From contig CM026562.1 of NCBI GenBank assembly GCA_015143295.1, forward strand, positions 15,590,041 to 15,654,040: a stretch of 64,000 bases of DNA, in the 5' to 3' direction. This stretch comes from Tetracentron sinense (Eukaryota; Streptophyta; Magnoliopsida; Trochodendrales; Trochodendraceae). This document shows positions 1 through 52,850 of the stretch, in pieces (the first letter of the stretch is position 1; each line of letters begins with the position of its first letter). Under the pieces are notes generated by a model that worked only from the letters and a program-made list of their open reading frames with translations, made no database searches and was not told where the DNA came from. The translations under genes were made by a program, and so were the position numbers.

Positions 1-576
1 TCTCTATTGGGTGAGGTAGGAGAAAGGAAAGTACAAGGTCCGGAGTTGATTGAGCAAACTGCAAACACGGTTAAGATCATTCGGGATCGATTGAAAGCCG
101 CTCAAGATCGCCAGAAAATTTATGCGGACACGCGCCATAGGGACTTGGAATTTCAAGTAGGGGATCAAGTTTTTGTGAAAGTATCTCCCAGCAAAGGGAT
201 CATGAGATTTGGCAAGCGAGGCAAGCTCAGTCCTCGGTATGTTGGGCCTTTTGAGATTATCACGCGAGTTGGTGAGGTTGCTTACAGGGTAGCTCTCCCA
301 CCTCACATGGCCGCAGTTCACAACGTTTTCCATGTGTCTATGCTTCGGAAGTACATTGCGGATCCTTCGCATGTCATAGACTTGGAACCGTTGGAGATTC
401 GAGAGGACCTCACCTTGATTGAAAAGCTGGTTCAGATTTTGGATCGAAGAGATCAAGTGCTTCGCAACAAGACAATCCCTTTGGTTCTTGTGCAATGGCA
501 ACACCATACTCGGGAAGAAGCTACATGGGAGCGTGAAGCCGAAGTCAAAGCGAAGTACCCAGAATTATTTGAATGA
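1..576 (+). CDS. Element A: C-terminal end of Ty3/gypsy polyprotein (integrase tail with chromodomain-like region)
   Basis: This is the last ~190 codons of a Ty3/gypsy pol; the start lies left of the window. It is the integrase C-terminal tail (GPFEI and VHNVFHVSMLRKY motifs) followed by a chromodomain-like end (LVQWQHHTREEATWERE). Integrase inserts the element cDNA into the host chromosome, and a chromodomain can steer it to chromatin. The order and wording fit the Tekay/Del chromovirus lineage. The frame is open to a TGA at 574-576 and is followed 90 bp later by a polypurine tract and the 3' LTR. The matching gag of this element is at 44589-44840 on the opposite strand, beyond the N gap. 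Confidence 0.9.
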   Translation, partial: SLLGEVGERKVQGPELIEQTANTVKIIRDRLKAAQDRQKIYADTRHRDLEFQVGDQVFVKVSPSKGIMRFGKRGKLSPRYVGPFEIITRVGEVAYRVALPPHMAAVHNVFHVSMLRKYIADPSHVIDLEPLEIREDLTLIEKLVQILDRRDQVLRNKTIPLVLVQWQHHTREEATWEREAEVKAKYPELFE

Positions 577-664
577 GTTTTTGTATAAGTTTGTATATGA
601 CTTGTAATTTTCTTTTTGGTTTGTAACGCAAGTAGTGTCTAAATTTCGAGGACGAAATTTTTGT

Positions 665-677
665 AAGGGGGGGAGGA
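665..677 (+). promoter_or_regulatory. Element A polypurine tract (plus-strand primer)
   Basis: A purine run (AAGGGGGGGAGGA) ends directly at the first base of the LTR, as expected for the RNase H-resistant primer of plus-strand DNA synthesis. The stretch before it carries the short repeat 'aatttcgaggacgaaattt', which also precedes the polypurine tract of element G. Confidence 0.85.
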
Positions 678-882
678 TGTAGAGCCCCGGACCTTTTCAC
701 ATTTAATGCATGACACTTTCGTTGCCATTTTGCCTTTAAAGAGGTATAATTAATAAATAAGGAAGAAATTGGAAATTTTCAGAAATGTTCGTTTTCGAAG
801 TACGAACCCAACGCAAGTTGAATCGTCAAAATCGGAGGAACGAGTCAAAAGTTATGGCCAAAACAGTTTGGACCTGCAGACC

Positions 883-1066
883 ACCGATCGCTCGGTCCAT
901 GGAGCGATCGATCGGTCCAAAACCGATCGCTCGGAGGCTATCGACTGGTCAAGATTTTTGTATGGGAAAATTTTCCAGAGAGTGAAATTTTAACCGATCG
1001 CTCGGTTATGAAACCGATCGATCGGTAGGCAACCGATCGATCGGTCATTAACACCGATCGCTCGGT
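883..1066 (+). promoter_or_regulatory. U3 palindrome cluster in element A LTR
   Basis: Seven copies of the 13-14 bp motif ACCGATCG(A/C)TCGGT occur at 883, 904, 922, 993, 1013, 1032 and 1053. The form with A in the middle is a perfect palindrome. They lie upstream of the putative leader, where LTR enhancers sit. A ~50 bp non-palindromic stretch (938-990) separates two groups. The whole module recurs in solo LTRs A3 and A4 and in the copia element E LTR. Confidence 0.7.
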
Positions 1067-2009
1067 ACTCGCGTTTTTGCAGAAATTTCAGTAAGGGTAT
1101 TACGGTCTTTTGGTCGGTTTACTCTTACCTTAAGAGTTTAACCCGAGCCTTTAGGGCTTCATTTCCACACTTAGAGAGATTGGGAGATAAGAAGAGAGGA
1201 GAGGGAGATTCCTAAACCTAGGGTTTCCATTTTGGAGAGAAATCAAGGGGTTTGTGAACCCACACTCAACTCAAGCCCATTTTTCTTCAAAATCAAGGCA
1301 CAAACTCGTGAGGAGCATCTCCTCAAGCTAGGGCAGCAACTCACAGTCGTTTTTGGAAGGAGATTTCTTCCGCACTTGATCAAGGTCGGTACTTCTTACT
1401 ACCCTCCTAGTTATAGCTTCCCTTTTTCCTTTGTTTCTCCTTGTTTTCCTTCACTTATATATGTGTTATGAGATTAGTGGTATGAATGGTGAATGAAGAT
1501 GGATGTTGGCGAATGGATGCCGTGTGGATGATGTGATGAACGAATGGGAAAGGGCATTGTACTAATAATGAACATACAAGTGTGATGTGAGCATAACCCA
1601 CCTAGAAAAGCATGATCTAGGTTTAAGTGAATAATGAACACACCCCATGTTTGATGAAATGCCAAGGTGAACAAAATAAATGATAAATTAAGGGAACCCA
1701 TGCTTAATTGCTTTTGAAATTTGTTAGGGTTCATGATAGTGTGTTTCTTACATTTCTTAAAATGTGTAGATTATTACTCACTTAAATTGTTATATGCTAT
1801 GCTTTGTGAATTACCCCAAATTGCCATATTTAATTCCAAATGCAAGTATGCACACGATCTCACGAGCACGCATCAAATGACGTGATTTACCGATGTTTTA
1901 AGTATGGGACGTAGAGGTGGGGCATATCCTAAGATATGTTTCACTTCGCTTTTGAAAAGGGCAAGAAAATCATGCATTCCATAGGGAAAGGTCTCCCATC
2001 CCCTCGCAT

Positions 2010-2370
2010 GACATGCATAGCATCGCATGACACGCATAGCATAGCATGGCATGACACGCATAGCATAGCATCACATGACACGCATAACTCTGCATGGCAT
2101 GACACGCATGGATGCTAGTTGCGACGGGTTATGAACGGCAATTAGGCATTCACATTTCCGCATGGATGCTAGTTGCAACGGGCTATGAACGGAAACTAGG
2201 CATTCACATTCCGCATGGATGCTAGTTGCGACGGGCTATGAATGGCAACCAGGCATACCCATCTGCATATAGGGTACTAGTTACGACGGATTATGAATGG
2301 CGACTAGGCATATCATTCAGTGTACAGGGTACTAGTTGCGACGGGCTATGAACGGCAACTAGGCATGTGA
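2010..2370 (+). repeat. Tandem repeat array in element A LTR
   Basis: Two arrays adjoin. The first (about 2005-2110) is a degenerate 'gcatgacacgcatagcat' repeat. The second (about 2108-2367) has five ~55-60 bp units containing 'ctagttgcgacgggctatga'. In most units CTAGTTGC pairs with a downstream GCAACTAG, so each unit can fold. Copies differ by a few substitutions, several of which change one side of the stem. Confidence 0.8.
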
Positions 2371-2710
2371 ACATGTTTAAATTATGAACAAGCAAGCATG
2401 ATACTCGCATGACACGCATGACATGACATGGCACGCATGATGCAAGCAGGACAAGCATGACACGGTTAACAAGTTCCCAATCACTCAAAGGGTATTTCAA
2501 GTCAAGTCAAGTGCACGATGTTTTCAAGGGTTTTATCAATTTTTCTGAATGCAAGCATGAATATAAATTGCTTTACTTCCTTGTATGATATAAATTGTTC
2601 ATGTTCTATATATGCAATTTGTTTCCTACTTTATGTATGCTATCTGTATACTATGACTGTTGGTTAGTATTTAGTACCCGTTGAGTATTCCATGCTCAGC
2701 CATACTTCTT

Positions 2711-2830
2711 ATGTCGGCAGGTTCTGAGGGAGCTGCTGCTCCATTTGATGTTTGTGCTCCTGGTCCATGGGTGGAGGAGGAGTACGTCGAGGAGCCTTTG
2801 GAGGAACCTCCCGTAGAGGGTTATCAGTAG
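2711..2830 (+). CDS. LTR-encoded small acidic ORF (39 aa), element A 3' LTR
   Basis: The ORF runs from ATG 2711 to TAG 2828-2830 and is rich in Glu and Pro (core PWVEEEYVEEP). I recognise no domain. The same frame, start MSAG and core are kept in solo LTRs A2 (7369-7488) and A4 (55592-55732), and the core but not the ATG in A3 (22254-22369). A copy identical over the region compared lies in the other A LTR (45504-45623). Differences between A and A2 include silent changes such as TTT/TTC, GTT/GTC and GGT/GGA. The ORF overlaps the candidate splice acceptor at 2720, so it might be a second exon rather than a free-standing gene. Function unknown. Confidence 0.45.
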   Translation: MSAGSEGAAAPFDVCAPGPWVEEEYVEEPLEEPPVEGYQ

Positions 2831-3132
2831 GTGGTGTTAGATTCTGAGTGGATTAGCTGTGGGTGAGCATGAGTGATTATATCTATGTATTTTGGCGGGC
2901 ATGTCCGCACTTTCTTTGTTTTGAATTCTTTGTATTAAAACTTGGACCATGTGTATATACTTAGAGGTTTGTTAGACTTCCGCTGTGTTTTGTAGTTATG
3001 CTTCCGCTGTTATCCTCTATTGTATATGCTCTGTGGGTGTTTTGCAGGTGGTTTGTCAAGCAAGTCATGTAAGTCATGATTTAGTCGTCCACGATTCACT
3101 CTAACTCCTAGGGTGGGTTTTGGGTCGCGACA

Positions 3133-4560
3133 GTTCCTTTCACATCTCCACACCTCTGGTTTTGCTCAAGTTCAGCCAACTTGATTTCAAGACTTGTTTT
3201 TTCATCAAGACAAACATGTAAATCAGATTCAAGTAGCTGAGTCTTGGCAAGGAGGGAAGCCTTCTCTTCCTCAAGCTGTGACACAAGAGCTCTCAACCCT
3301 GAAGCCACTTGGTCTAAGGCATCTTTTTCCATTTCAATAGACTTGATCTTTTTGGACATGGAAAACTGAACCTTTTTTCAGCTTTAGGCATTCCTGAAAT
3401 AGTTCATCATAGGCTGCCTCAAGGTCTCCCTCAGAATCTGAGTCATTCTGACTCTCATCATCCTCCTCACCATCCCTACAGTGTTGGTTACTCAAAGCAT
3501 TTGAAGAAGATTCCTCAATCCCAGATAAGGATGTAGTGAAGGCCACATAACCCCTAGTCTCCTCACAAGAAGAACTATCTGATTCCTCAGATTCAGATTC
3601 ACTGTCATCCCTTGCCTTGCCCTTAAATCTTTTCTTATTGGAGCATTCAGTGGCAATATGGCTGTAGCCTTGGCATTCATAACATTGAACACCTTGGGAT
3701 TTCTTGTCCACACTTTTAACATGTTTCTTGTTTTCAAAGTGCTTGGACTTGGGCTTTTCAAAATATTTTTGTCCTTTCGAATTAAATCTCTTATTCAGTT
3801 TCAAAAATTTTCTGAATTTCTTAGCAAACAAAGCCAACTCTTCTTCTTCATCCTTAGAGTCACTATCTGAACCATCTATGGATTCCTTGACGGACTTCAA
3901 GGCAATGGATTTTGGTTTCTTAGATGGATTCAGATTTAACTCATACGTTTGGAGAGAACCAACCAACTCTTCAAGTTTGAGAGCATCAATATTTTTGCTC
4001 TCCTCGATGGCGGTAACCTTCGATCAAAATCTCTGAGGTAGAGATCTCAAAATTTTTCTCACAATTTTGGACTCTGGAATTCTTTCCCCTAGATTAAAAC
4101 TGGAATTGACAATGTCACTCAGATTGGCATAAAAACTATCAAAAGTTTCATTATCATCCATCATCAACTTTTCAAACTTAGAGGTCAGTAATTGAAGTTT
4201 GGAGATCTTGACAGTTGTAGTCCCTTCATGGGTAATTTGAAGAATGTCTCATGCCTCTTTCGAAGTAACACATGTAGAAATACGTCGAAATTATTCGAGT
4301 GTGACAGCAGCGAAGATTGCATTTGGACCCTTAATGTTCCATCTACAACTCTCAAGCTCTACATTGGTCTATTCAGAAGAAGGTTTAGGGATGGTCTGAT
4401 CATTTATGGTCTTTCTTGGTTGGGTCCAACCTTGTTCAATGGAGAACTATACTCTCTCGTCCAATGATTTAAGAAACACTCTCATTCGAGCTTTCCAATA
4501 GGCATAATTATTCCCATCAAATAATAGGGGACAAGTGATGGATCCTCCCTCTCTTTGGAG
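3133..4560 (-). pseudogene. Element D gag, 5' half (Sirevirus-like copia, broken)
   Basis: Read on the minus strand, this is a copia gag (nucleocapsid precursor) with the usual N-terminal start (FDGNNYAYWKARMRVFL), the UBN2-type middle (LTSKFEKLMMDDNETFDSFYANL), a CCHC knuckle (CYECQGYSHIATEC), a Ser/Asp/Glu-rich stretch and a coiled coil. Several in-frame stops and frame changes lie between 4000 and 4500, so it is dead. It ends abruptly at 3133 where the A 3' LTR begins. The continuation, starting exactly after the same 5-bp duplication, is at 47643 on the plus strand, beyond the N gap. The protein is close in layout to element E gag (62580-64000). Confidence 0.88.
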
Positions 4561-4608
4561 ATTTATATTCACCGAAAATATGAGTCAAGATCACACTAAA
4601 AAGTAAGT

Positions 4609-4628
4609 GAACCTGCTCTGATACCAAT
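4609..4628 (-). promoter_or_regulatory. Element D primer-binding site (tRNA-iMet type)
   Basis: Directly after the LTR end the minus strand reads TTGGTATCAGAGCAGG. It is complementary to the 3' end of initiator methionine tRNA, the usual primer for plant copia elements. It fixes the LTR edge at 4629 and the element's minus orientation. Confidence 0.9.
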
Positions 4629-5762
4629 TGAAAATTCTAATTCGATGAACCTCAAATCCGATGTTTGAGTTGAGAATCTACAAGTTCGAGGGGTTGGTTA
4701 GGTTTCCCTAATAGTCTGTCTACCCTTTTTGATGTTTTTAAATTAAGTTATTTAACTCAAAGGAAGATGATAATCAAGTGCGGAATAAGGAAAACCAAGC
4801 AAACCATAACACAAGAATTTTTACGTGGAAACCCTTCCGAAAAAAACCACGGGACCTAGTCCAGCCATGAGAATCCACTAAGACAAAGTAAACAAGAACT
4901 TACAAGACTCGAACTTGACTCCTTCGGACTCGACACCACGATCCTTCAATTCTTAGTCCTCCATGCCTCGAAAAGTCACCACGTACTCTCAAGTCCCGTG
5001 ATCAACCGCAGCCGCTTGTACTTCTCTTTGTATCTCTAAAACAATCCACGATCTTTCGATCGATCTCCATCAATGACAGCTTCAGAATCACCGACCAAAT
5101 CAGTCTACCACGATCCTTCTCGGATCGATCTACTTTGGAAAGGTTCCGGAATACTCCGGCCAAGGTGTTCTCTCCAGAACGGGTTGATGGTTTGATATAA
5201 ATCAATACCTAGATGGACTCCATTAAAGGACAAGTCCAAACAAGCAAAATTGTAGCTTTAGGCTTGCAAACTCTAGGTTTAAAGGCATTAACCAAAGGGG
5301 AGGAGAGCACCAATTTTCATAGGTTTTATAACCTCTGGAGGAACTTAAAAACCCTCTCCACACACCCCCTCAGTTGTGCTCCACGAAGTGGAAGGGTTCT
5401 GTAGAGCCCCGAAACTTTTGCTATGCATTGGAACTCATGCCAAGGCATTTTTGCCTTTGTAATCTTCTTCCTTTCTATGAAATGAGAAATTTTGAACAAC
5501 TTAAGTATTAAAAGGTAGTGTTCCCAAGTCGGGTGTGTCGAAAAACCCGAGTTACTGAAACCATTGGCGGATTAGTTGACTTCAGGGGTAATTTAGTCAA
5601 TAAATAAAGTAGAAATTGGAAATTTTGAAATATCAGGAATGTTCCTTTTCAAAAGACGAATCCAACGTGAGTTGAATCGTCAAAATCGGACAAACGAGTT
5701 GAAAGTTATGGCCAAATTACCAAAGTGTGGAAAAATGGGAGAAAACAACAAAATCTGGAGGG

Positions 5763-6003
5763 TGCGATCGATCGCATGCAGGCGAAATAGGTCCTAAACT
5801 CTCGGGGTCATATGCGATAGATGGATCCCCAGGTGCGATAGATCGCAGGGATCTGCGATCGATCGCAAGAATGTGCAATCGATCGCATGCAGGGGAAAAT
5901 CAGGCCAGAAAGGTTCTGGTTCATGTACGATAGATCGCATCCAGGTGCGATCGATCGCAAGGACCTGTGATCGATCGTAGATAAGTGTGCGATCGATCGC
6001 ATG
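5763..6003 (+). promoter_or_regulatory. U3 palindrome cluster in solo LTR A2
   Basis: About eight copies of TGCGATCGATCGCA or near variants occur, for example 5763-5776 and 5854-5867. They hold the same place in the LTR as the ACCGATCGATCGGT cluster of element A. The GATCGATC core is the same, but the outer bases are changed on both arms so that symmetry is kept. Confidence 0.65.
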
Positions 6004-7368
6004 TGGTAGCAGATTCCGAATTTGAGGGTCTTAAACCCTTTTCTTGTTAGGGATCCTCATTTGAGGTATTTCTAACCTAGAGAGGAGAGAAAGAGGGGAG
6101 AAAGGAGAAGGAGATCTTGGGGAAATCCTCCAATGTGGCTTGGATTGGAGATCAAGGGAAGCTCATCTTGAAGATTTTCAAGCAAAGGACCTTTCTCAAG
6201 CAACTAGAATTCCTCAAACCCAAAGAGGGATTCTTCCTCAAGTTGGAGCTCCGCATCAAGGGTGTTCTCCACTCTATCAAAGGTCGGTACCCTATACTAC
6301 CCTTCTAGTTCATCAATTATCTCTATTTTCCCCTTATTTTATGTTTTTCCTAAATTTCTAAACAAGATGAAGAGATGGAATGAATGGATGGTTTTGTGGA
6401 CTTGAATGGGCGATTGGATGCCATGGGTTGTGTTGTGATGATTAAAATGGGAAGGGCATTTCACCTCAATAATCAACATACGTGATGTGGATTGAATGAA
6501 GAATGATTCATGTAGAATAAAATGAAAGATTTAGGTGTTAACCAAAATACACATACCGTGTGTTTGATGAAATGTCTCAATGGAGAAAATGATGATTTGT
6601 AGTGGAAAATGTATGTTTAAATGTTTATGAATTTGCTAGGGTTTATGATATTGTACTATGTTGCTTTCCCTAAATTGGTATGAATATTGAATTGCTCAAA
6701 TTGTCATATTTAATTTCAAATGAAAGTAAGTACACGATTCCACGAGCACGACATTCATGACATGTTTTACCGATGGTTTTACAAGAGTAAGGATGTTAGG
6801 GGTGGGACATATCTTACGATATGTTTTACCTCGCTTTTGACCAGAGGACAAGAACAAGCATTTCTTAGGAGGCAGTTTACACTTCCCTCCCTTCCATGAA
6901 GGGTCTCCCCTCACTCACAAGTGCATTGCATTAAAGAAGGGTCTCCCTTCCCTCTCAAGGCATATCACGAAAGAAGGGCCTCCCTTCCCTCTCAAGGCAT
7001 CTCACAAGCGCATCTCACAAGTACATGAGCATGTTGAACTCCTAAGTAAGCACGCATGGTACACGCATGGTACACGTATGACATGACACGACACGACACG
7101 ACACGACAAAACAAGACAGACAAGACAAGTTTTCAAGCACGAAAAGGGTGTTTTAAGTCAAGTCAAGTGCACGATGTTTTTCAAGGATTTTATCAGCTTT
7201 TACGAAAAGCAAGCATGATTATCAACTGCTTTACTATCGCGTGATGATATGAATTGTTTCTACTTTATATCTGTGAACTACTTCCTGCTTTCCATATAGT
7301 TATTGTTTGCTATGATTGTTGGTTAGTGTTTGGTACACGCTGAGTATTCCATGCTCAGCCGTACGTTT

Positions 7369-7488
7369 ATGTCGGCAGGTTCTGAGGAAGCTGCTGCTCC
7401 ATTCGATGTCTGTGCTCCTGGACCATGGGTGGAGGAGGAGTACATTGTGGAGCCTATGGAGGAACCTCAGGGTGAGGGTTACTATTAG
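7369..7488 (+). CDS. LTR-encoded small acidic ORF (39 aa), solo LTR A2
   Basis: This is the homologue of the ORF at 2711-2830, with the same start (MSAGSEE), the same length and the core PWVEEEYIVEP, ending TAG at 7486-7488. It keeps its frame although the surrounding LTR has diverged. Function unknown; it may be an exon downstream of a candidate splice acceptor (7378/7379). Confidence 0.45.
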   Translation: MSAGSEEAAAPFDVCAPGPWVEEEYIVEPMEEPQGEGYY

Positions 7489-8531
7489 GTTGTGGTAGAT
7501 TCTAAGTGGATAGCTGTGGGTGACTTGAGAGAGAGGTATTCATGTATTTTGGTGGGCCTGTCCGCACTTTCTTTGTCTTGATTTCTGTTGTATCAAACTT
7601 GGATCACGTATGTATATACATAGAGGTTTGTTAGACTTCCGCTGTTCTTTGTTATATGTTTCCGCTATTATTATCCTCTGTTGTATATGCTCCAGGTTTG
7701 TTGCAGGTTGTTTTGGTCAAGCAAGTCATGCAAGTCATGATGAGTCGTCCAAGATTCACTCTAACTCCTAGGATGGGTTTTGGGGTGCGACAGGTTCTCT
7801 ATAAATAGGGAATCAAAAACCAAGTTTTAGAAGGTGTTAAAGTTGCTAAAAACTCAAAAAAGCATGAAAAACCGATTTTGGCAAGAAATCCATATCAGGG
7901 TCGACCCATGGGGCACATTCGGTTAACCGGATGGTGCCATTCGGTCGACAGGATGGTCCTCAGGGTCGACCCTCACTTTTTTTAGTCTCTGCCAAAAAAC
8001 CTGGTACAAATCTTGCTATACCTAGGGTCGACCCAAAATGGTCTGGGTCGACTCTGAGGTGCCAAACCGAATTTTAAAGTTTGTTTTTGGGTCTCAGACC
8101 CTTCACAAGAGTTATAGCCCTTTTCGACATGGTCATTTTGACATATTATGGAGCAAAATCAGAGCTACAGTTTGTGAGATACACTCAAAACAAGTAACCT
8201 TGGTTTTTTGAAAAATTTCAGAATTTAAAACAAGTTTTGCACTATTTATCTTATCACCTAGGGTCCGTATGGTTAGTCTAGGTCACTTACCACCTAAGGC
8301 ATCATGTTAGGATAATCCTAGGTCAAGTCCCACCTATGGTAGTATGGTATCTAGGTCACTTACCATCCTATGAAGGAAATGATCAATCGAGTGGATCAAC
8401 CAGTCTTCTTTGGTCTTCATCTTGCTTTGGCGTGGATGCTTGAAGATAATGACATAAGATACTCACCTAGACACCTAGACTCACTTGTTTTGACACCGGA
8501 ATATGCAAACACCAAAAACATGGACTTTACA

Positions 8532-9289
8532 AAAAATTTTTTGAGAAAATCCATTTATAAGTATAATACCTTTTAATAAAAGTATATTTCAAAACTTATT
8601 TTGTTTTCAAAATCACCTACGCAGGATTTGACCTTAATCAACTGTCTTACCTAGAACTTGGATAATCTCTCAAATTAATAAGCATGGATTTCTTGTTTGA
8701 AATTCATCATGACTCAAACAGCTTTCTAACTATCCAACTGTTACTGTATTGTATTCCCTAAGTTAGAAAATACGTTGGTGGAATCAAAACAGTCAGACAC
8801 AGCTCAGTCATAGATGAACTCATCAGATCTAATGATCATCGACACCGTTCAATGTGAATGAGAGACCAACTATTTGATAGTATATTTATGAAAGAGGTCT
8901 CTCATTGAATGCAATCAGTCAGTGTACATTTAAGCACCCATATGCCAATGTGTAGTCTCCACTACAATAGTTCGAGATAAAACTATATCTCAACTATTGA
9001 GAACATCTTAGCATTCTGGCAGCCATATAAGTGAAGTGCCCAGCTTCACCCACAGCTGTGACTATATAAGGTATAAGGAACCGGAAAGTTATATCTGCCT
9101 GTGATAATCTAATCACATAACTTTCCTACAATATATCTTATGGAGCTTTATCGATATCTTATATCGTATAGATCATTTCATGATCATGGTCAATTACCCA
9201 TAATGAATACACAATAGATTAAGAAGAAGTCTTTATTAATCAAATTAATAAGAGTCTAACAATCTAAATGACTTTTCGGGTCAGCAACA
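8532..9289 (-). repeat. Element B 3' LTR, upstream part
   Basis: On the minus strand this begins TGTTGCTGACCC (edge 9289) and matches the first ~760 bp of the B 5' LTR (22659-23430) and of solo LTR B2 (28982-). It stops at 8532 where the D 5' LTR begins. The remainder of the LTR is at 51390-52850 on the plus strand. Together they total about 2.2 kb, the same as the B 5' LTR without its insertion (2223 bp) and solo B2 (2217 bp). Confidence 0.9.
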
Positions 9290-9299
9290 TTAATTTGAG

Positions 9300-9868
9300 A
9301 CCTAATCTTTGTAACATCTATACCTTTCTTCTCAATAATCTCATTAATGAGAAGATACTTCCTCTATGTGAAAAGTAAGCATATAATCCCTAATTCTTTT
9401 CAGGTACTTCATAATATGCTTCACAGCAGTCCAATTATCTCATACTAGGATTGCTTTGGAACCGACTAACAACTCCCACTGCATGATAGATATCCGGTCT
9501 AGTACATAACATGGCATACATGAGGCTCCTAACTGTCGAAGCATAAGGACACTTTTTCATCTGCTCGATCTCATCAGCTGATGTAGGGGCCATCTTTTTA
9601 GACAGATTGACACCATGTCTAAAAGGAATGAGTGTTGTCGTACAATCACTCATACTGTACCTAGACAATATCTTGTCTATGTAGGAAGTTTGGCTTAATC
9701 CCAATAGTTGGCATTTTCTATCTCTCAGAATCTTTATTCCGAGAATATAGGATGCCTCTCCCAAGTCTTTCATTGAGAAATGCTGAGCCATATCTTGACT
9801 GATGACAACATCCCTACATCATTCCCAATGAGTAGGATGTCATCTACATAAATAATTAGGTACACTAC
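9300..9868 (-). pseudogene. Element B pol, end of reverse transcriptase (copia, broken)
   Basis: The minus strand encodes the YVDD catalytic box of copia reverse transcriptase (YLIIYVDDILLIGNDV, about 9800-9863). After a frame change comes the downstream thumb region (MKDLGEASYILGIKILRDRK, then TRPDIYHAVGVVSRF). Most of RNase H is missing before the 3' LTR. The reading continues from 11947 across the solo LTR C insertion at 9869-11941. Confidence 0.85.
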
Positions 9869-11941: not shown

Positions 11942-11946
11942 ACTAC

Positions 11947-39975: not shown

Positions 39976-39988
39976 AAGGAGGGGAGAT
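39976..39988 (+). promoter_or_regulatory. Element G polypurine tract
   Basis: AAGGAGGGGAGAT abuts the 3' LTR start TGTAACG. It is preceded by 'aatttcgaggacgaaattt', as in element A. Confidence 0.88.
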
Positions 39989-42765: not shown

Positions 42766-42770
42766 CTACA

Positions 42771-44488
42771 GTCACATGACAGGGACATAGTAGCCATGCA
42801 AACAAAGCTTGATAGTGTTCTGGAATCCCTGAAGATTCTAATTGGTGTCCGAACCGAAGAACCCTATACCCGGATCCCGACTGGAGAACTAGCCCAGCAA
42901 CCCATACCAGAGCCTCATCCTCCCCCCTTCATCATACCTGACTTTATACCCGCAACAGGCAGAGGAGAGGAGTATGACCAATATGAAGAGCAGCCCAAGG
43001 CCTCACATATCAACCAGGACCAGCCATCATCCTCGGACCCTACTCCATCCTTACAGGACGAGATCAAGCAGATGAAAGAAGAAATGAGAAGAATGAAGGG
43101 TGCATCCACCAGTACCAGTCTATCGCTGGAGGAATTAACTTTCTCATCAGGCGATACTGTTCCCGCAGGCTTCATGGTCCCGAACTTTAATAAATACAAT
43201 GGCTCAGGCTGTCTAAAGCAACATCTAAAGTTATACTTTGGGAACATGCTCCGGCACAACCGAAACCAGCCTCTACTCATTCATTATTTTTGGAAGAGTC
43301 TGAAGGGGATAGCCCTATCATGGTGGATGTCGGTAGACAAGCAAAAAGTCAAGAGCTGACAGGATACCATGGACAGTTTCGTGGAGCAATACTCCTTTAA
43401 CCAGGAGCTCCACCCTCAGAGGAGCCAACTTGAGCAGCTAAGCTAGCGTAACAACGAATCATTTCTGAAATACGCCACCCGCTGGAGGGAAATGACAGCC
43501 AAGATCCCAACTCCAATCCCTAAGGAAGAGCTGGCAAGCATGTTCATGGGCACTCTAAAGCAGCCCTACTCTACACTTATGGTGACTTTACCAATAGTGG
43601 AATTCGGCACCATCGTCAAAACGGGTGCCTGTATCGAGACTGCCATCAAGAGCGAGCTATTCATTCCAGTCTAGGACTTGATCCCCCCAAGGCAACTACC
43701 TCATCTAGCAGGAACATCGGTCCTAAGTACTACAGAAAGAAGGAAGATGTACATATGGTTGCTTCTACAGCACCCATCAGATTACCAGCTCCAGCAGCTC
43801 AGTAAAGTCAGCTGTCAGAAATACCTGGCCAGCCCGACCAATCCAGGGGCAAAACCGTCCCCCCAGAAAATTTACCCCTCTTCCATACACACTCAGCCAG
43901 CTGTTGGAATTCCTAACCAAGCAGGGTCTTCTCGAGTTGAGAGGCCCCACACCTCTTTTACCTCCAGACAACTACCATGCCGATCAACACTGCGCCTTCC
44001 TCAGAGGCTCAGGCCATGCTACACACTACTGCATAGGCCTGAAGTGTACCATCCAAGATCTCTTGGATGACAGAAGGGTTGAGCTGGTTCCTAGCAACGC
44101 CAGCATCAATCAGGTGCCACTGCCCCCACATAAAAATCAAATCAACTTCATTCAGTGGGAAGAGCCCGTGGCAGGGCAGCCAGGATCCAGCACACTCGCA
44201 GTTGATTGACGGCATCATCAGGCCCTCTTACCGGTCCCCCGTCATGATCCTCTTCCCCCAATAAAAAATACAGACCATTCAGTCTCCAATCCAAATACCT
44301 GTCCTCGAGCAAATCATTTATACTATCCCTTGCCCTGCAAATTGGCCTACAGCTCCAGCTCAAGCCTCAACCTCTTCAGGTCCTGTCCAGATCCCCTACA
44401 TCTTATAGACACCTTTTGACCTTAACCAAGTACCCACCCCCACTCTCCTCATCTTGAGAGCGAGAGCATAACCAACCAAACCAGAATG
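42771..44488 (+). pseudogene. Element F gag and start of protease region (Tat/Ogre-like, broken)
   Basis: The frame resumes directly after the G TSD. It has an N-terminal coiled coil (LQDEIKQMKEEMRRMK), then the gag core of the Tat type (FMVPNFNKYNGSGCLKQHLKLYFGNML, LIHYFWKSLKGIALSWW), after stops at 43359 and 43443 YATRWREMTAKIPTPIPKEELASMF, and further on HYCIGLKCTIQDLLDDRRVE. The sequence is cut by the N gap at 44489, so pol is not in the window. Confidence 0.8.
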
Positions 44489-44588
44489 NNNNNNNNNNNN
44501 NNNNNNNNNNNNNNNNNNNNNNNNNNNNNNNNNNNNNNNNNNNNNNNNNNNNNNNNNNNNNNNNNNNNNNNNNNNNNNNNNNNNNNNN
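44489..44588. other. Assembly gap (100 N)
   Basis: Exactly 100 N, the customary size for a scaffold gap of unknown length. To its left is element F gag (plus strand); to its right is element A gag (minus strand). It coincides with the point at which the orientation of three nested elements flips. Confidence 0.98.
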
Positions 44589-44840
44589 CAGGTCCACACT
44601 CCCATGGAAGGATGGAGGCCTCAATCTCCAGAATGCCTCAACTCCAGCTGCACGATGTACTGGAGCTCTGGGCGGTGGAGTAGGTGCCGCTGATGCCGGT
44701 ATAGTTTGCCGAGCCGCCAGGATGGCGAGTGTCTCAGCAATAGAGCCTAAGACTTGAGAGAGGTCCGGCTGCTCATCCTCATCCCGTGAAGAAGAGGAAG
44801 CTCTGGTATGTGGCCCACGACCCCGTGTGTTCCGTCTCAT
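44589..44840 (-). CDS. Element A gag, N-terminal part (cut by gap)
   Basis: The minus strand from ATG 44840 encodes MRRNTRGRGPHTRASSSSRD, then LSQVLGSIAETLAILAARQ and a Pro-rich stretch before VEAFWRLRPPSFHGSVD. That last motif is the usual entry to the gypsy gag domain. The frame is open up to the gap. It follows the element A 5' LTR and leader, and the matching end of pol is at 1-576 on the plus strand. Confidence 0.82.
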
Positions 44841-45201
44841 GACTAAAGTCCTGAGAATAATAACACCACATGAGTCTAACTTGAAACCACAGTTTATTTC
44901 AATGTCATTTCACAATAATTCAATTTGTATTAGTTGTATAATACTAATATACATCACATCAAGTCATCAGAGTATTCATCACATTATACTTATACTTTAG
45001 TGTTCTAGCGTACCTAGGAACCGTACTTAGTTGAAGCAACCATTTTAGACTAAGACTAAAGTTTAGTCTTACACTTGGAACCAGACTCGCTCCCGACTTA
45101 CTTCCTTCCTAACTTGTTTCCTAACATATGCTCTTGTCAAGCTGTGGTAGGAGATTCTAAGTGACCCTAGAGACCTAAAGCCTAAGCTCTAATACCACTT
45201 C
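44841..45201 (-). other. Element A leader and primer-binding site
   Basis: This is non-coding sequence between the 5' LTR and gag. The primer site TGGTATTAGAGCT (minus strand, 45185-45197) lies four bases after the LTR edge. It differs from the initiator Met tRNA complement by one base (T for C). I see nothing else here. Confidence 0.8.
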
Positions 45202-47642
45202 TGTCGCGACCCAAAACCCACCCTAGGAGTTAGAGTGAATCGTGGACGACTAAATCATGACTTACATGACTTGCTTGACAAACCACCTGCAAAACACCCA
45301 CAGAGCATATACAATAGAGGATAACAGCGGAAGCATAACTATAAAACACAGCGGAAGTCTAACAAACCTCTAAGTATATACACATGGTCCAAGTTTTAAT
45401 ACAAAGAATTCAAAACAAAGAAAGTGCGGACATGCCCGCCAAAATACATAAATATAATCACTCATGCTCACCCACAGCTAATCCACTCAGAATCTAACAC
45501 CACCTACTGATAACCCTCTACGGGAGGTTCCTCCAAAGGCTCCTCGACGTACTCCTCCTCCACCCATGGACCAGGAGCACAAACATCAAATGGAGCAGCA
45601 GCTCCCTCAGAACCTGCCGACATAAGAACTATGGCTGAGCATGGAATACTCAGCGGGTACTAAATACTAACCAACAGTCATAGTATACAGATAGCATACA
45701 TAAAGTAGGAAACAAATTGCATATATAGAACAGGAACAATTGATATCATACAAGGAAGTAAAGCAATTTATATTCATGCTTGCATTCAGAAAAACTGATA
45801 AAACCCTTGAAAACATCGTGCACTTGACTTGACTTGAAATACCCTTTGAGTGATTGGGAACTTGTTAACCGTGTCATGCTTGTCATGCTTGCATCATGCG
45901 TGCCATGTCATGTCATGCGTGTCATGCGAGTATCATGCTTGCTTGTTCATAATTTAAACATGTTCACATGCCTAGTTGCCGTTCATAGCCCGTCGCAACT
46001 AGTATCCTGTACACTGAATGATATGCCTAGTCGCCGTTCATAGTCCGTCGCAACTAGTACCCTATATGCAGATGGGTATGCCTGGTTGCCGTTCATAGCC
46101 CGTCGCAACTAGCATCCATGCGGAAGGTGAATGCCTAGTTGCCGTTCATAGCCCGTCGCAACTAGCATCCATGCGGAAATGTGAATGCCTAGTTGCCGTT
46201 CATAGCCCGTCGCAACTAGCATCCATGCGTGTCATGCCATGCAGAGTTATGCGTGTCATGTGATGCTATGCTATGCGTGTCATGCCATGCTATGCTATGC
46301 GTGTCATGCGATGCTATGCATGTCATGCGAGGGGATGGGAGACCTTTCCCTATGCAATGCATGATTTTCTTGCCCTTGTCAAAAGTGAAGTGAAACATAT
46401 CTTAGGATATGCCCCACCTCTACGTCCCATACTTAAAACATCGGTAAATCACGTCATTTCATGCATGCTCGTGAGATCGTGTGCATACTTGCATTTGGAA
46501 TTAAATATGGCAATTTGGGGTAATTCACAAAGCATAGCATATAACAATTTAAGTGAGTAATAATCTACACATTTTAAGAAATGTAAGAAACACACTATCA
46601 TGAACCCTAACAAATTTCAAGAGCAATTAAGCATGGGTTCCCTTAATTTATCATTTATTTTGTTCACCTTGGCATTTCATCAAACATGGGGTGTGTTCAT
46701 TATTCACTTAAACCTAGATCATGCTTTTCTAGGTGGGTTATGCTCACATCACACTTGTATGTTCATTATTAGTATAATGCCATTTCCCATTCGTTCATCA
46801 CATCATCCACACGGCATCCATTCGCCAACATCCATCTCCATTCACCATTCATACCACTAATCTCATAACACATATATAACTGAAGGAAAACAAGGAGAAA
46901 CAAAGGAAAAAGAGAAGCTATAACTAGGAGGGTAGTAAGAAGTACCGATCTTGATCAAGTGAGGAAGAAATCCCCTTCCCAAAACGACCGTGAGTTGCTG
47001 CCCTAGCTTGAGGAGATGCTCCTCACGAGTTTGTGCCTTAATCTTGAAGAAAAATGGGCTTGAGTTGAGTGTGGGTTCACAAACCCCTTGATTTCTCTCC
47101 AAAATGGAAACCCTAGGTTTAGGAATCTCCCTCTCCTCTCTTCTTATCTCCCAATCTCTCTAACTATCGAAATGAAGCCCTAAAGGCTCGGGTTAAACTC
47201 TTAAGGTAAGAGTAAACCGACCAAAAGACCGTAATACCCTTACTGAAATTTCTGCAAAAACGCGAGTACCGAGCGATCGGTTGCCTACCGATCGATCGGT
47301 TTCATAACCGAGCGATTGGTTAAAATTTCACTCTCTGGAAAATTTTCCCATACAAAAATCTTGACCAGTCGATAGCCTCCGAGCGATCGGTTTTGGACAG
47401 ATCGATCGCTCCATGGACCGAGCGATCGGTGGTCTGCAGGTCCAAACTGTTTTGGCCATAACTTTTGACTCGTTCATCCGATTTTGACGATTCAACTTGC
47501 GTTGGGTTCGTACTTCGAAAATGAACATTTCTAACATTTTAGAATTTCCAATTTCTTCCTTATTTATTAATTATACCTCTTTAAAGGCAAAATGGCAACG
47601 AAAGTGTCATGCATTAAATGTGAAAAGGTCCGGGGCTCTACA
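45202..47642 (-). repeat. Element A 5' LTR
   Basis: Read on the minus strand it runs from TGTAGAGCCCC (47642) to GGTCGCGACA (45202), 2441 bp. It is very similar to the LTR at 678-3132, with small differences such as one fewer palindrome near 47260-47320. The outer flank on the element strand is gttcc. It contains the five-unit hairpin array (about 45960-46225), the small acidic ORF (45504-45623) and the palindrome cluster (about 47260-47450). Confidence 0.94.
45504..45623 (-). CDS. LTR-encoded small acidic ORF (39 aa), element A 5' LTR
   Basis: This is the minus-strand counterpart of the ORF at 2711-2830, with the same core PWVEEEYVEEP; I saw no difference over the stretch compared. Expected, since both LTRs belong to one element. 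It adds no independent evidence of selection. Confidence 0.45.
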   Translation of the reverse strand: MSAGSEGAAAPFDVCAPGPWVEEEYVEEPLEEPPVEGYQ

Positions 47643-48138
47643 GGAACTCCATCCACCTCGAACACTGAGCCTAGTGTTAAAAGGCACCCTCCTAGTAAAG
47701 GGAATGGCCCTTCAACTCAGAAATTCATTCCTACATGTCATAAATGTGGAGTGAAGGGTCATATTAAGCCTATGTCCTAAACTTCGAAGAATGCCCAATC
47801 ATGGTTTTGAGAACCACAAAAATTTTCATGGGAATCTTCAAAAGAGAGTTGAGGTCCTAGTGGAGAAGTTTAGGAGTTTGTGTGAAGATGTGATGAAAAT
47901 TGCTCACAACTCTAGACAGTGGCATGGTCATGACACTCCTCATGCTAGATATAGAGGAGGTAAAGGGGAGAACCATAATGCCCGTCATAATTCTAGGACT
48001 CAATCTTGGAAAAGGAGGAATAGGAGGAAGAGGCAAAAGGTCATACCTATCTCAACTGAAACGGTTAGAGACCAAAGGGTCAATCAAACTTCTAAAACCG
48101 TTTGGGTGAGAAAGGAAGACCTGAAGGGCTTCACTTAG
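47643..48138 (+). pseudogene. Element D gag, 3' half (Sirevirus-like copia)
   Basis: The plus strand continues the gag that stops at 3133: it begins with the same 5-bp duplication ggaac and reads on in phase (GTPSTSNTEPS). It contains a CCHC-like knuckle start (CHKCGVKGHIKP, last Cys lost to a frame change near 47775), then LQKRVEVLVEKFRSLCEDVMKIAH and a basic stretch (KRRNRRKRQK) ending VWVRKEDLKGF and TAG. Each block matches element E gag in the same order. No protease or other pol domain follows. Confidence 0.86.
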
Positions 48139-49914
48139 CCCGTGCCTGTCATAGCCTAGGGTGTGTTTGTATTGATATATCTTGCCCTAATGCTATGCTA
48201 TATGTGTATACTAATAGTTTTTCTTTTTACTAGTGCTTATTTGCTTTAGTATGGTTTTCTGTTTTCTTTATTTTGAAAAATCCAAAAACATTGAAAAACC
48301 ATAAAATCCAAAAAGATTTTTTTTATATTGCCCTTACTTGACTTGCATGATTTGCATTCCTTGTGTGATCTTTATTTCTATACTTGTCCAGGGTTGAATA
48401 TGAGCTTGTTGCTGATTGAGGATATATCACCTTCATAGTCTCTTGGTTAGGCTGAAAATTGGACCGATTTTATCTTGAATAGTTAGAGACCTATTCTTGT
48501 GTGTATGCTTTACAAATTTCACATGCACTCTGACTGATTCTATTGAGAGGTCTATTTTCCAATCTGTAGGTGTAAGGCTTATCCCTTTAGTGTGACCTTG
48601 GATGACCAATCTAGAATGACCATATTTGTTAGTCATCCCCATTTTGTGTATCCTCCATGAGCTTAATTTGTTGCAATGAAAATGGCTACCTATTGGGATA
48701 GTGTGAAAGTCACTATTGGATGCAAACAGTATGAAATGGCTACCTAGGCAGACAGTAGGTATCTATCTGGGTCACTAGAGTGAAAGCCCCTGTTGCTAAT
48801 AGCCAGGACTACCTACCTGGATAGTGTGAAAGCCATCATTGCATGAAAAGATATGACCAGATAAAGATCATCAAAAGAAATCTTACAAAGTTTGGAGGCA
48901 TTTGACAAAAAATAAAAGTAAACTAATGAGTGAAATAAAATGGATACAGGAGCACTAAAATGTAAAAAATCAGCATATCTGGATCTAACTAGGTTTGACT
49001 TCTAAGATGTATGTCTTCGGGAGTCCCCTTAGTGGTTAATGTCATACCCTTGGAAAGGGAAAGAAACCTTGATCTAGTATCTTGTCAGACCACCACTACA
49101 CACAATGCTTCACTTTTGAACTGTTCACTAAATATGTCTAAGTGAATTGGCTATGCTTTAGCATTCCATGAGATTTAGTTAGATGGGTATCCTCAGTCGG
49201 ACTAACTAATCATGTTCTTCATTGGATTTGTAATTTTAAATTACTACTCTTGGAATGCTTTTGATGCATGTTTGTGTGGCACGTGATATTTTTTTTATTA
49301 TTATTATGTGGTCTCTTATTGGTTTACCATGGGCCTTTCTAGCATAAGTGCCCGGTTTTTGGTGATATCCTTGATCTTAGGGGGAGAAGATCAAGTTGAG
49401 TTGTTGAGGGGGAGTTCTGTGCTTGAGTTGTTGAGGGGGAGTTTGTGCTTTATATTTCTATCTCGTTCCCCGGTTTTTAGTCCCTCATTGTCTGTTTTGA
49501 TTGGTTGTACTGTGGTTGCCTTGATATTTCACTTTTGTTAAATTGATATATTTTTTTTTGAATATTGGCTTCCTAACTTCCTTTGGCAATTGTGCCAAAA
49601 ATGGGGAGAATGTTAGGGTAGTATTTCCCTCGTTCAGTACATTCCTTGCTTCACCTGTGATTACTTATTTTCATATTCCACACATGCTTCACTGGGTATT
49701 TTGTTTTTGAGCATGTGCAGGTGCAAAGTTGCAGCAGACTGATGCAGACTGATTTTTCTTGGCAAGAGCTTAAGTGTCTTAAATTAAGATGATTTGTCGA
49801 TTGGTGTCATGTAATAGTATTAGAGTCATGTAATGTCCTAATTCACCGTTTTGATGTGTTTGGGTGAGTTTGTGTCACGCCATGTACTTCAGTTTGATTT
49901 TGCCACGGAATTGC
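48139..49914 (+). other. Element D 3' non-coding region (pol absent)
   Basis: About 1.8 kb without coding sequence follows gag where pol would be. It resembles the non-coding region downstream of pol in element E: 'aaaaatccaaaaacattgaaaaa' (48277-48300), a repeated block with 'ggctacct' and 'gtgaaagcc' (48683-48850), and several purine tracts (about 49378, 49409, 49433, 49598), a hallmark of Sireviruses. It reads as retained cis-acting sequence. Confidence 0.7.
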
Positions 49915-49927
49915 CAAAGGGGGAGAT
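49915..49927 (+). promoter_or_regulatory. Element D polypurine tract
   Basis: AAAGGGGGGAGAT abuts the LTR start TGTAAAGTCC. The preceding 'gaattgcc' is shared with element E at the same place. Confidence 0.88.
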
Positions 49928-51389
49928 TGTAAAGTCCATGTTTTGGTGTTGGCATATTTTGGTGTCAAAACAAGTGAGTCTAGCTGTCTAGGTGAGTATC
50001 TTGTGTCATTATCTTCAAGCATCCATGCCAAAGCAAGATGAAGACCAAAGAAGACTGGTTGATCCACTTGATTGATCATTTCCTTCATAGGATGGTAAGT
50101 GACTTAGATACCATACTACCATAGGTGGGATTTGACCTAGGATTATCCTAACATGATGCCTTAGGTGGTAAGTGACCTAGACTAACCATACGGACCCTAG
50201 GTGATGAGATAAACAGTGCAAAACTTGTTTTAAATTCTGAAATTTTTCAAAAAACCAAGGTTACTTTGAGTGTATCTCACAAACCGTAGCTCTGATTTTG
50301 CTCCATAATATGTCAAAACGACCATATCGAAAAGGGCTACAACTTTTGTGAAGTGTCCGAGACCCAAAAACAAACTTTTAGATTCGGTTTGGCACCTTAG
50401 AGTCGACCCTGACCATTTTGGGTCGACCCTGGGTATAGCAAGATTTGTACCAGGTTTTTTGGCAGAGACTAAGAAAAGTGAGGGTCGACCCTGAGGGGCA
50501 TCCGGACGACCGAATGTGCCCCATGGGTCGACCCTGATATGGATTTCTTGCCAAAATCGGTTTTTCATGCTTTTTTTTAGCAACTTTAACACCTTCTAAA
50601 ACTTGATTTTTGATTCCCTATTTATAGAGAACCCTTCCACTTCGTGGAGCACAACTGAGGGGGTGTGTGGAGAGGGTTTTTAAGTTCCTCCAGAGGTTAT
50701 AAAACCTATGAAAATTGGTGCTCTCCTCCCCTTTGGTTAATGCCTTTAAACCTAGAATTTGCAAGCCTAAAGCTATAATTTTGCTTGTTTGGACTTGTCC
50801 TTTGATGGAGTCCATCTAGGTATTGATTTATATAAAACTATCAATCCGTTCTGGAGAGAACACCTTGGCTGGAGTATTTCGGAGCCTTTCCAAAGGAGAT
50901 CGATCCGAGAAGGATCGTGGTAGAGTGATTTGGTCGGTGGATTCCGAAGCCGTCATTGACGGAGATCGATCGGAAGATCGTGGACTGTTTTAGAGACACA
51001 AAGAGAAGTACAAGCGGCTACGGTTGATCACGTACGTGGTGACATTTCGAGGCGTGGAGGACTAAGAACTGAAGGATCGTGGTGTCGAGTCCTAAGGAGT
51101 CAAGTTCGAGTCTTGTAAGTTCTTGTTTACTTTGTCTTAGTGGATTCTCATGGCTGGACTAGGTCCCGTTATTTTTCCCGAAAGGGTTTCCACGTAAAAA
51201 TCCTTGTGTTATGGTTTGCTTGGTTTTCCTTATTCCGCACTTGATTATCATCTTCCTTTGAGTTAAATAACTTAATTTAAAAACATCAAAAATGGTAGAC
51301 AGACTATTAAGGAAACCTAACCAACCCCTCGAACTTGTAGATTCTCAACTCAAACATCGGATTTGAGGTTCATCGAATTAGAATTTTCA
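49928..51389 (+). repeat. Element D 3' LTR
   Basis: It starts TGTAAAGTCCATG and ends GAATTAGAATTTTCA, 1462 bp, followed by TTTTT. It matches the split LTR at 4629-8531. It contains AGGGTCGACCCT (perfect palindrome, 50481-50492) and several near copies (50400-50530), just upstream of a TATA-like TATTTATA (about 50608). Confidence 0.93.
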
Positions 51390-52850
51390 TTTTTCATGAG
51401 AAATTTTTTCTCATGGCTTAATCATAAGTCTTGGAAACCCGGATGATTTACAATGGGTTATGGATAAGATAGTATGTCAATCTCGAAGGCCTATTAGGGA
51501 TAATGTATTTTGAAGGATAAATCGAATTTAAAAGTTCATGTGGCAAGATCCGTAATGGTTTATATTCATACACTGGGATTCAATTGCAACATGGATATCT
51601 CACGTCACTTCTAATTCCAATGTATTTCCTGTTTAGGGTCAATGGGATAACATTGGGTAAGCCAGGGTAAGAATGTCTCAGAGCAATCTGTGTAGGTGCT
51701 CACATAAGAAATACAAGGTCAATAATTGATTAAAAGTCAATCAATATTTAAGTGATTAAAAGTTAATCTTGAATTAAATAGATTAACAGTTAATCTATTG
51801 TTTAAATTAATTGTTAACTTAAACTAAGGGAATATTAGTAATTATTTGATTAACATAATTAAAGGGAAAATGGGTCTGACCCATATCCATGAACCCATTA
51901 AAATGGACCTTTAATATGGGCCAAAGCCCATGGGTTTAAACCCTAGGGTGGAGCGCTCACTTTAGGAATCCTAATTGGATTAGGATTATGTTAATTGAAT
52001 AATTGTTGAAATATAATTGCTATAATTATGGAATTAAAATCCAATTGTTGGATTGCAATAAGGATGAGGATAAGATGTAATTGGATTACAACTTGGAGTG
52101 TTTAACTCCTCAAACTCCATGCCCCCTTGATGCTCACGCTCCCCTCTTTGGTTTAGGTTTCCTAGTTTGACTAGGATTCCTCTCTTGTGTTGGATGTTGA
52201 CTTATCCCTTTTAATTAAGGAATCCTCTTTTAATAGGGACGCTTTAATTAGTAGGATTACTATAACTAAAGTAGTTATAGATTAAGTAGGAGTTTAATTA
52301 ATTAATAGTAAAAGTTATTATTAATTAATAATTTCTACTAGATAAGTTGTAGTTGGAATAGGATTATAATAGGATCCTAGTCTATATATACCCCAACACC
52401 CTAGACCATTCAGTACTTTTTTCCAGAATTTTTTCTCTCCTCTCCTCTCTCTCTCCAAATCGTGAGCCCTAAGGGATACCCCTAGGGATTTTCTTGAGCC
52501 TCTAAAGTGGTGCAAGTTGGGTTTTGTTTATTCTAGGGTTTTGAACCTTAGTACTTTTGTTGATAGAAGGTCTACACCATTACTCCATCTTCTTCCTCTT
52601 GCTTCTATAATTCCAAAGGAGATTCTAAAGCTTCGTGGGGATAGCGAAGAACAAGGATCGAGCTTCTAGTATTTTTTCGGAGAAATCTCTACAAAGAGTT
52701 CAGACGGTTCGAGGGGATTAAGTTTCACCGGTGAACATCATTCACCGAGGTGATATGACTAAAACTCTTAGATAATTTTGATGCTTTTTATGGTGTTAAG
52801 ATCTAAGGGGATTCAGTTTTCGTATAAATTTTTATCCAGATCCCCCTTCA
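51390..52850 (+). repeat. Element B 3' LTR, downstream part
   Basis: This matches the last ~1455 bp of the B LTRs, ending GATCCCCCTTCA, and is followed by gttaa, the TSD of B. It begins with CATGAGAAA after the D flank TTTTT, exactly where the part at 8532-9289 stops. The uninterrupted form is seen in solo LTR B2 near 29745. Confidence 0.92.

What the first reader, a model, noticed from the sequence alone, without database searches (positions are those of the whole stretch)
1..52850. Three nested retrotransposons are split across the N gap in opposite orientations: the left part of the window is inverted
A, D and B each have one half left of the gap and the complementary half right of it, on the opposite strand. 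A: 3' LTR end followed by gttcc at 3133; 5' LTR preceded on its own strand by gttcc at 47647-47643. D: gag stops at 3133 and continues in phase at 47643; outer flanks are TTTTT at 8536-8532 and 51390-51394. B: outer flanks are gttaa at 23435-23431 and 52851-52855, and its 3' LTR parts (8532-9289 and 51390-52850) sum to the length of an intact B LTR. The rejoined target sites match uninterrupted copies elsewhere in the window: the D site in solo LTR B2 near 29745, and the B site in the F repeat near 25971-25995. Independent TSD matches for three insertions make chance very unlikely. The one orientation change lies at the 100-N gap, so a flipped contig in scaffolding is the simplest reading. A true inversion, for example between two A copies, is the alternative.
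Basis: partly seen in the sequence, partly recalled or inferred. Interest (0 to 1): 0.93.

Follow-up and report, generated by a model that had tools for sequence, protein, structure and literature searches.

The report
Backwards contig inside a plant chromosome
A 62-kilobase piece of this plant chromosome was very probably put into the assembly back to front, as the torn retrotransposons in it show; this is an ordinary assembly error and not new biology.

Summary
The split-nest observation is real, and its headline reading (a flipped contig) holds. The anatomy behind it is partly wrong.

The window lies in a held 1.16-Gb genome, at C12:15590041-15654040. Flanking DNA shows 100-N gaps at -17444..-17345 and 44489..44588. 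They delimit a 61.8-kb contig X between neighbours W and Y.

The TSDs of A, D and B pair across the X/Y gap only if X is reversed. Both ends of X also overlap their neighbours, inverted: W's last 10.5 kb with X's right end (about 7 kb at 98%, then an error-rich tail), and Y's first 3.8 kb with X's left part at 99.2%. Among 40 scored matches each, the E|F and A|D junctions are full length at 99-100% only in these contig pairs. Reversing X resolves both joins.

Corrections: A is complete in X, so the A "half" right of the gap is a second copy of the same locus. X's left end lies 17.3 kb left of the window, inside another element (K).

A staggered-break inversion is formally possible but unlikely.

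The parts
1..44488 (-). Part of contig X (whole: C12:15572696-15634528, window -17344..44488, 61,833 bp) that lies in the window; reversed relative to both neighbours
   Evidence: N runs of 100 at -17444..-17345 and 44489..44588; inverted overlaps at both ends
44489..44588 (.). 100-N scaffold gap where the orientation changes
44589..64000 (+). Start of contig Y
1..677 (+). Element A (Ty3-type, probable chromodomain), 3' end of the internal region; the rest of A (5' LTR -6946..-4505, gag, protease, RT, RNase H) lies left of the window in the same contig
   Evidence: Tf2-1 SH3 hit; Chromo hit just below Pfam's cut-off (23.7 against 25.1 bits); gag, protease, RT, RNase H hits in L009; coordinates
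678..3132 (+). A 3' LTR, followed by TSD GTTCC 3133-3137
3133..4628 (-). D internal region with the first part of gag
4629..8531 (-). D 5' LTR, interrupted by an insert with A-like LTR sequence, about 5404-7792; TSD TTTTT at 8536-8532
8532..9289 (-). B 3' LTR, first part
9290..18740 (-). B internal region (copia-type gag, integrase, RT fragments)
   Evidence: Retrotran_gag_2, gag_pre-integrs, rve, RVT_2
18741..23430 (-). B 5' LTR, interrupted by a 2.46-kb insert (about 20193-22652, short A-like stretches, own TSD not checked); TSD GTTAA at 23435-23431
23431..24302 (+). End of an F-family LTR into which B inserted; its earlier part lies in contig Y (67747-66235, then 52879-52851 beyond H)
31199..32019 (+). 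F leader and gag region before E; last 5 bp are the E TSD CTACA
32020..42765 (+). Element E (Ty3-type by frame order; RVT_1 hit; LTRs 32020-34812 and 39989-42765; TSD CTACA on both sides), inserted in F gag
42766..44488 (+). F gag continued, cut off by the gap; in contig W the repeated gag is followed, on the same strand, by pol-like frames
   Evidence: 2 of 5 frames hit RVT_3 or RT_RNaseH_2
34520..44485 (-). Stretch shared, inverted, with the last 10.5 kb of contig W (-27963..-17445); about 7 kb at 98%, W's last 3.6 kb much poorer
   Evidence: E|F junction full length at 2 of 40 scored matches, here and in W
44591..48404 (-). Stretch of contig Y shared, inverted, with contig X at -7706..-3895 (29 substitutions and 2 indel columns over 3.8 kb)
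   Evidence: A|D junction full length at 99-100% at 2 of 40 scored matches, here and in X
45202..47642 (-). A 5' LTR in contig Y (second copy of the same insertion); TSD GTTCC at 47647-47643
47643..49927 (+). D internal region, second part, with the end of gag
49928..51389 (+). D 3' LTR; TSD TTTTT 51390-51394
51390..52850 (+). B 3' LTR, second part; TSD GTTAA 52851-52855
52881..64000 (-). Element H, continuing to 66233 (copia-type by my reading of its frame; gag related to D gag); LTRs 98.5% alike; TSD AATGT on both sides
   Evidence: SH3_retrovirus hit

Best explanation
The orientation change is a scaffolding error. Contig X (C12:15572696-15634528, 61,833 bp) was placed between contigs W and Y in reverse. 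The true order is W, reversed X, Y. Both joins are overlaps that the assembler did not merge: about 10 kb of F gag plus element E between W and X, and about 3.8 kb of A/D between X and Y. A likely cause is that the overlaps are allelic (99.2% identity between X and Y; X carries an extra element K inside D that Y lacks) and that two contig tails are unpolished. Shown: TSD pairing, colinearity, inverted overlaps, junctions shared only by these contig pairs among the scored matches, odd error pattern of the tails. Inferred: that the tails are raw-read sequence, that the overlaps are allelic, that K is a heterozygous insertion, and that a Hi-C-type scaffolder made the flip.
For: TSDs of A, D and B pair only with X reversed. 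W's end and X's right end are inverted copies, up to W's last base and to 3 bp from X's last base. X's left part and Y's start are inverted copies, up to 2 bp from Y's first base. Of 6 pairs among the four 10-kb contig ends, only these 2 share stretches of at least 95% and 300 bp (five best hits per pair looked at), both inverted. Among 259 random pairs of 10-kb pieces of the region, 1 shares at least 1.5 kb at 97% or more, and that one is the W/X overlap itself. The E|F junction is matched full length at 2 of 40 scored places in the genome (3800 candidates), X (+) and W (-), both listed as 100%. The A|D junction is matched full length at 99-100% at 2 of 40 (3644 candidates), Y (+) and X (-). 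F gag, cut at 44488, is followed by pol-like frames in W (2 of 5 frames with Pfam hits). The F LTR around B and H is colinear across the flipped join. LTR ages fit the nesting. SALSA2 paper (PMC6719893, passages seen): inversions are common when input contigs are short, because wrong orientations then get a similar weight of links.
Against: No reads, Hi-C map or second assembly were available. X carries 9.6 kb of element K at D position 48404 where Y has uninterrupted D, so the X/Y overlap is not a plain dovetail. X and W differ by 49 substitutions over 1.7 kb of F gag, transition-rich and concentrated in X's last 1.25 kb; this is not explained. Part of W's tail (-20244..-18823) has no local match to X's E, the whole tail aligns to it at only 68.8%, and the negative control for that alignment was uninformative because end gaps were free. 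The indel-rich look of the tails depends on the alignment costs: with mafft they show more substitutions than gaps (52 openings for 370 substitutions in K, 45 for 266 in W), still more gaps per substitution than the two controls (8 for 100, 3 for 104) and with transversions above transitions.
Confidence: 0.95

Rival explanations
1. A true inversion made by staggered breaks with fill-in, which leaves inverted duplications at both ends of the inverted segment (order A-a-b'-M'-a'-b-B). The observed order W(E/F)-gap-X(A/D...F/E)-gap-Y(A/D) has this formal layout.
For: Inverted duplications at both ends of X. The mechanism and its footprint are described in the passages seen of PMC7584159.
Against: Both presumed junctions coincide with assembly gaps, and the homology at 44489-44588 runs to within 3 bp of both gap edges. 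Between copy a and copy b' lie a 3.6-kb poor tail of E, a gap and 9.6 kb of K, whose LTR starts exactly at the D site. The two duplications differ in divergence: 2 substitutions in 2.75 kb of E internal region against 29 in 3.8 kb. Duplications of 4-10 kb are far above the 58- and 534-nt overhangs of the one fly inversion in the passages; other inversions were not looked up.
Confidence: 0.03
2. Y's start is a real inverted duplicate of the A/D nest, and X is correctly placed.
For: Y's copy differs from X by 0.8%, and X has K where Y has none.
Against: Y also holds the complementary parts (D 3' LTR, B 3' LTR part, outer flank) whose TSDs pair with X. It does not explain the second inverted overlap, W with X, or the F gag-pol break.
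Confidence: 0.01
3. X is an alternative-haplotype contig (haplotig) that should have been purged; the primary path runs directly from W to Y.
For: Both ends of X overlap neighbours at allele-like identity, and K looks heterozygous.
Against: W reaches only X position 34520 and Y only X position -3895, so about 38 kb of X are in neither neighbour; X is needed as a bridge. Even so, its orientation would be wrong.
Confidence: 0.01

Closest known systems
Orientation errors of short contigs in Hi-C scaffolding (SALSA2 paper, PMC6719893; passages seen)
   Same: A short contig with one orientation change at each end, at scaffold gaps
   Different: The scaffolding method of this assembly is unknown; here the error is argued from sequence alone, by TSDs and contig overlaps
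Ordering contigs by TSDs of nested transposable elements (wheat ctg1034, PMC3017796; passages seen)
   Same: TSDs of interrupted elements used to order contigs
   Different: There used while building a scaffold from BACs; here used afterwards to detect a flipped contig
Staggered-break inversions with inverted terminal duplications (Drosophila subobscura O7, PMC7584159; passages seen)
   Same: Same formal order of duplicated ends
   Different: Here both junctions are assembly gaps, two tails look unpolished and the duplications are much longer than in the passages seen

Membership tests
Mis-oriented contig in a scaffold | Orientation changes exactly at scaffold gaps at both contig ends | tested here: met
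   Gaps at -17444..-17345 and 44489..44588
Mis-oriented contig in a scaffold | Reversing the contig restores continuity with both neighbours | tested here: met
   W/X and X/Y inverted overlaps; TSD pairs; F gag to pol-like frames. Caveat: K interrupts the X/Y overlap and W's tail is poor
Mis-oriented contig in a scaffold | Reads or contact maps contradict the present joins | not testable with these tools
   No reads or Hi-C data held
Staggered-break inversion | Inverted duplications at both ends | tested here: met
Staggered-break inversion | Duplicated ends directly joined at the breakpoints | tested here: not met
   A poor tail, a gap and 9.6 kb of K lie between W's copy a and X's copy b'
Staggered-break inversion | Both duplications of the same age | tested here: inconclusive
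   2 substitutions in 2.75 kb against 29 in 3.8 kb; allelic or polishing effects not excluded
LTR retrotransposon (A, Ty3-type) | Two LTRs, 5-bp TSD, PBS-like site, gag, protease, RT, RNase H | tested here: met
   In X the 5' TSD reads ATTCC, one base off the 3' TSD GTTCC; the coding frames have stops
Chromovirus-type Ty3 element (A) | Chromodomain at the end of pol | tested here: inconclusive
   Chromo hit E 4.6e-05, 23.7 bits, below the curated cut-off of 25.1

The most novel reading that the evidence does not exclude
X is a real, recent inversion of about 50-60 kb formed by staggered breaks inside nested retrotransposons of a plant, with inverted duplications of about 7-10 kb and 4 kb at its ends.
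Probability: 0.03. Interest if true: 0.5.

Novelty: not a real feature. Interest (0 to 1): 0.17.

Why it matters
The error creates a false inversion and two false inverted duplications (about 14 kb in all), which would be read as structural variation or broken elements. The case also shows that paired TSDs of nested LTR retrotransposons, together with inverted contig-end overlaps, can locate a flipped contig from the assembly alone. Ordering contigs by TSDs is itself in print (PMC3017796, passages).

Tried and rejected
Rejected: complementary A halves with about 3.6 kb of A missing. I had estimated this from E (by hand) before flanking DNA was available; flanking DNA then showed A complete in X.

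Rejected: that K is an old element because its LTRs look only 82% alike. With low gap costs the outer LTR differs from the inner one mainly by short indels and transversions: 2.6 gap openings per substitution, ti:tv 7:61. W's tail gives 1.4 and 4:83. The B, F and A pairs and the X/Y overlap give 0.07-0.25 and ti above tv; X's F gag end against W gives 0.33, and the W/X comparison over the E 3' half gives 0.93 with ti 9, tv 5. With mafft the contrast is smaller but in the same direction. K has open frames of 428 and 826 aa that read to me like gag and protease-RT. So raw-read-type sequence at the contig ends is likelier than age.

Rejected: that the D piece beside K has only two copies in the genome (my first reading). 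40 D matches were scored; after the window itself the best is 97% identical.

Rejected: that W's tail or X's left end came from another assembled locus. Apart from themselves, the best matches scored over their last kilobase are 85% and, over most of the query, 77-79% (a few short partial matches reach 85%).

Led nowhere: Pfam on D, F and H gag pieces (no hits). Protein search with D gag: 156 hits, 120 listed, many with the PF14223 gag domain; named sources were mainly plants; no species identified. The patchy identity of K to one C5 copy was not explained. Whether an F LTR inserted into another F LTR near 24302 was not settled. Paper searches: searches listed 3, 1, 1, 3 and 1 papers; [quoted passage not shown]
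Full report
WHAT WAS CHECKED. The window has one N run, 44489-44588. Self-comparison gives the LTR pairs claimed. LTR ends, PBS-like sites and flanks were read directly. A: TSD GTTCC at 3133-3137 and at 47647-47643 on its own strand. D: TTTTT at 8536-8532 and 51390-51394. B: GTTAA at 23435-23431 and 52851-52855. From window 5-mer frequencies the joint chance is about 3.5e-9. The B 3' LTR pieces 8532-9289 and 51390-52850 cover the solo LTR B2 with a 5-bp overlap. Empty-site scores: D 488 flipped against 222 unflipped; B 229 against 185. The B contrast is modest because Y's F sequence is interrupted 29 bp outside B by element H. Taken piece by piece, Y 66235-67747 and 52851-52879 are colinear with the uninterrupted F LTR at 72-86% identity. 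D gag halves match the H gag in order (residues 1-160 left, 299-446 right; 161-298 have no counterpart). K2P between LTRs is A 0.018, D 0.042-0.044, B 0.056-0.073, in the order of nesting.

THE WIDER CONTEXT CHANGES THE ANATOMY. The window is C12:15590041-15654040 of a 1.16-Gb genome. Coordinates below are window coordinates, negative to the left. Flanks were fetched. There are gaps of 100 N at -17444..-17345 and 44489..44588, and none else from -69999 to 114000 or in the two outer 10-kb stretches. So contig X is -17344..44488, 61,833 bp. A is complete in X: 5' LTR -6946..-4505, internal region with gag, protease, RT and RNase H hits and a sub-threshold chromodomain hit, 3' LTR 678-3132. The A part right of the gap is therefore a second copy.

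BOTH ENDS OF X OVERLAP THEIR NEIGHBOURS, INVERTED. X -7706..-3895 equals Y 48404..44591 with 29 substitutions and 2 indel columns; only Y's first two bases lie outside. W -27963..-17445 matches X 44485..34520 in pieces. From X 43239 to 37239 it is nearly identical, apart from short divergent patches within the E 3' LTR; the last 1.25 kb of X differ by about 5%; W's last 3.6 kb are poor, with 1.4 kb that has no local match. W's E sits at the same F site with the same flank CTACA. Of 6 pairs of 10-kb contig ends, 2 share stretches of at least 95% and 300 bp (five best hits per pair), exactly the pairs predicted by reversing X. The background in random piece pairs is 1 of 259, and that one is the W/X overlap. 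In the genome, 2 of 40 scored matches cover the whole E|F query, X and W. Three of 40 cover all or nearly all of the A|D query: Y 100%, X 99%, and one on C18 at 89%. These lists are capped at 40 of 3800 and 3644 candidates. F gag is cut at 44488; in W the repeated gag is followed by pol-like frames on the same strand, 2 of 5 with Pfam hits (RVT_3, RT_RNaseH_2). Thus W, reversed X, Y brings A, D, B, E and F into order at once.

TAILS. X's left end is the outer LTR of element K (minus strand, 5' LTR start at -7707, PBS-like site near -10168), inserted at D position 48404; Y's D is uninterrupted there. K's LTRs seem 82% alike and W's tail seems 83% like E. With low gap costs the differences are short indels and transversions (gap openings per substitution 2.6 and 1.4; ti:tv 7:61 and 4:83), while the B, F and A controls and the X/Y overlap give 0.07-0.25 and ti above tv. 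With mafft the ratios are 0.14 and 0.17 against 0.08 and 0.03 for the B and F controls, again with tv above ti in the tails only (ratios computed by hand). Both tails next to the gap at -17444 are thus most likely unpolished raw-read sequence; this is an inference. K has open frames of 428 and 826 aa, which fits a young insertion, probably heterozygous (inference).

INTERPRETATION. A contig of 62 kb with unmerged, probably allelic overlaps at both ends was scaffolded in reverse. Passages of PMC6719893 say that inversions are common when input contigs are short. Passages of PMC3017796 show that TSDs were used to order contigs before. The main biological rival, a staggered-break inversion (passages of PMC7584159), predicts inverted duplications at both ends. 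It needs both junctions to fall on assembly gaps and leaves the poor tail and K between the duplications unexplained. I give the flip 0.95.

LIMITS. No reads, Hi-C or second assembly; species not identified; the allelic nature of the overlaps is inferred; three planned junction searches did not complete; the F gag differences at X's right end are unexplained. W is gap-free for at least 62.5 kb and Y for at least 79.4 kb, as far as fetched.

Noticed in passing
L009/L010, window -17344..-7707: Element K (minus strand) sits in D at position 48404 in contig X but not in Y: a probable heterozygous, young insertion. The first 194 bp of its LTR match dozens of scored genome copies at 98-100%.
   Followed up: partly
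window -21050..-17445 and -17344 to about -15000: Contig tails on both sides of the gap differ from their counterparts by a raw long-read-type pattern (short indels, transversions), unlike the controls.
   Followed up: yes
43239-44488: The last 1.25 kb of X differ from W by about 5%, mostly transitions, although most of the adjoining 6 kb is nearly identical: mixed consensus, gene conversion or a divergent allele.
   Followed up: partly
39989-42765: X's E 3' LTR differs from its 5' LTR (14 substitutions plus indels), but W's copy of that 3' LTR differs from X's 5' LTR by 1 substitution in 2749 compared bases.
   Followed up: partly
20193-22652 and 8532/51390: A 2.46-kb insert in the B 5' LTR and D in the B 3' LTR sit within about 11 bp of the same LTR position (29752-29758 and 29741-29745 in B2): possible insertion hot spot.
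   Followed up: no
9869-11941 and 14190-16385: Two related elements of about 2 kb in opposite orientation inside B; relatives recur near -59691..-45210 and at 78076-79991 and 85354-87562.
   Followed up: no
56008-56283: Short tandem array of a 69-bp unit in a K-like LTR.
   Followed up: no
23431-26859: An F-family LTR end (24302) is directly followed by another F LTR lacking its first 165 bp or so: tandem or nested LTRs, not resolved.
   Followed up: partly
L052 (C18:5898888-5899181): A third place with an A-like LTR joined to D-like sequence at the same site, but only 89% identical.
   Followed up: no
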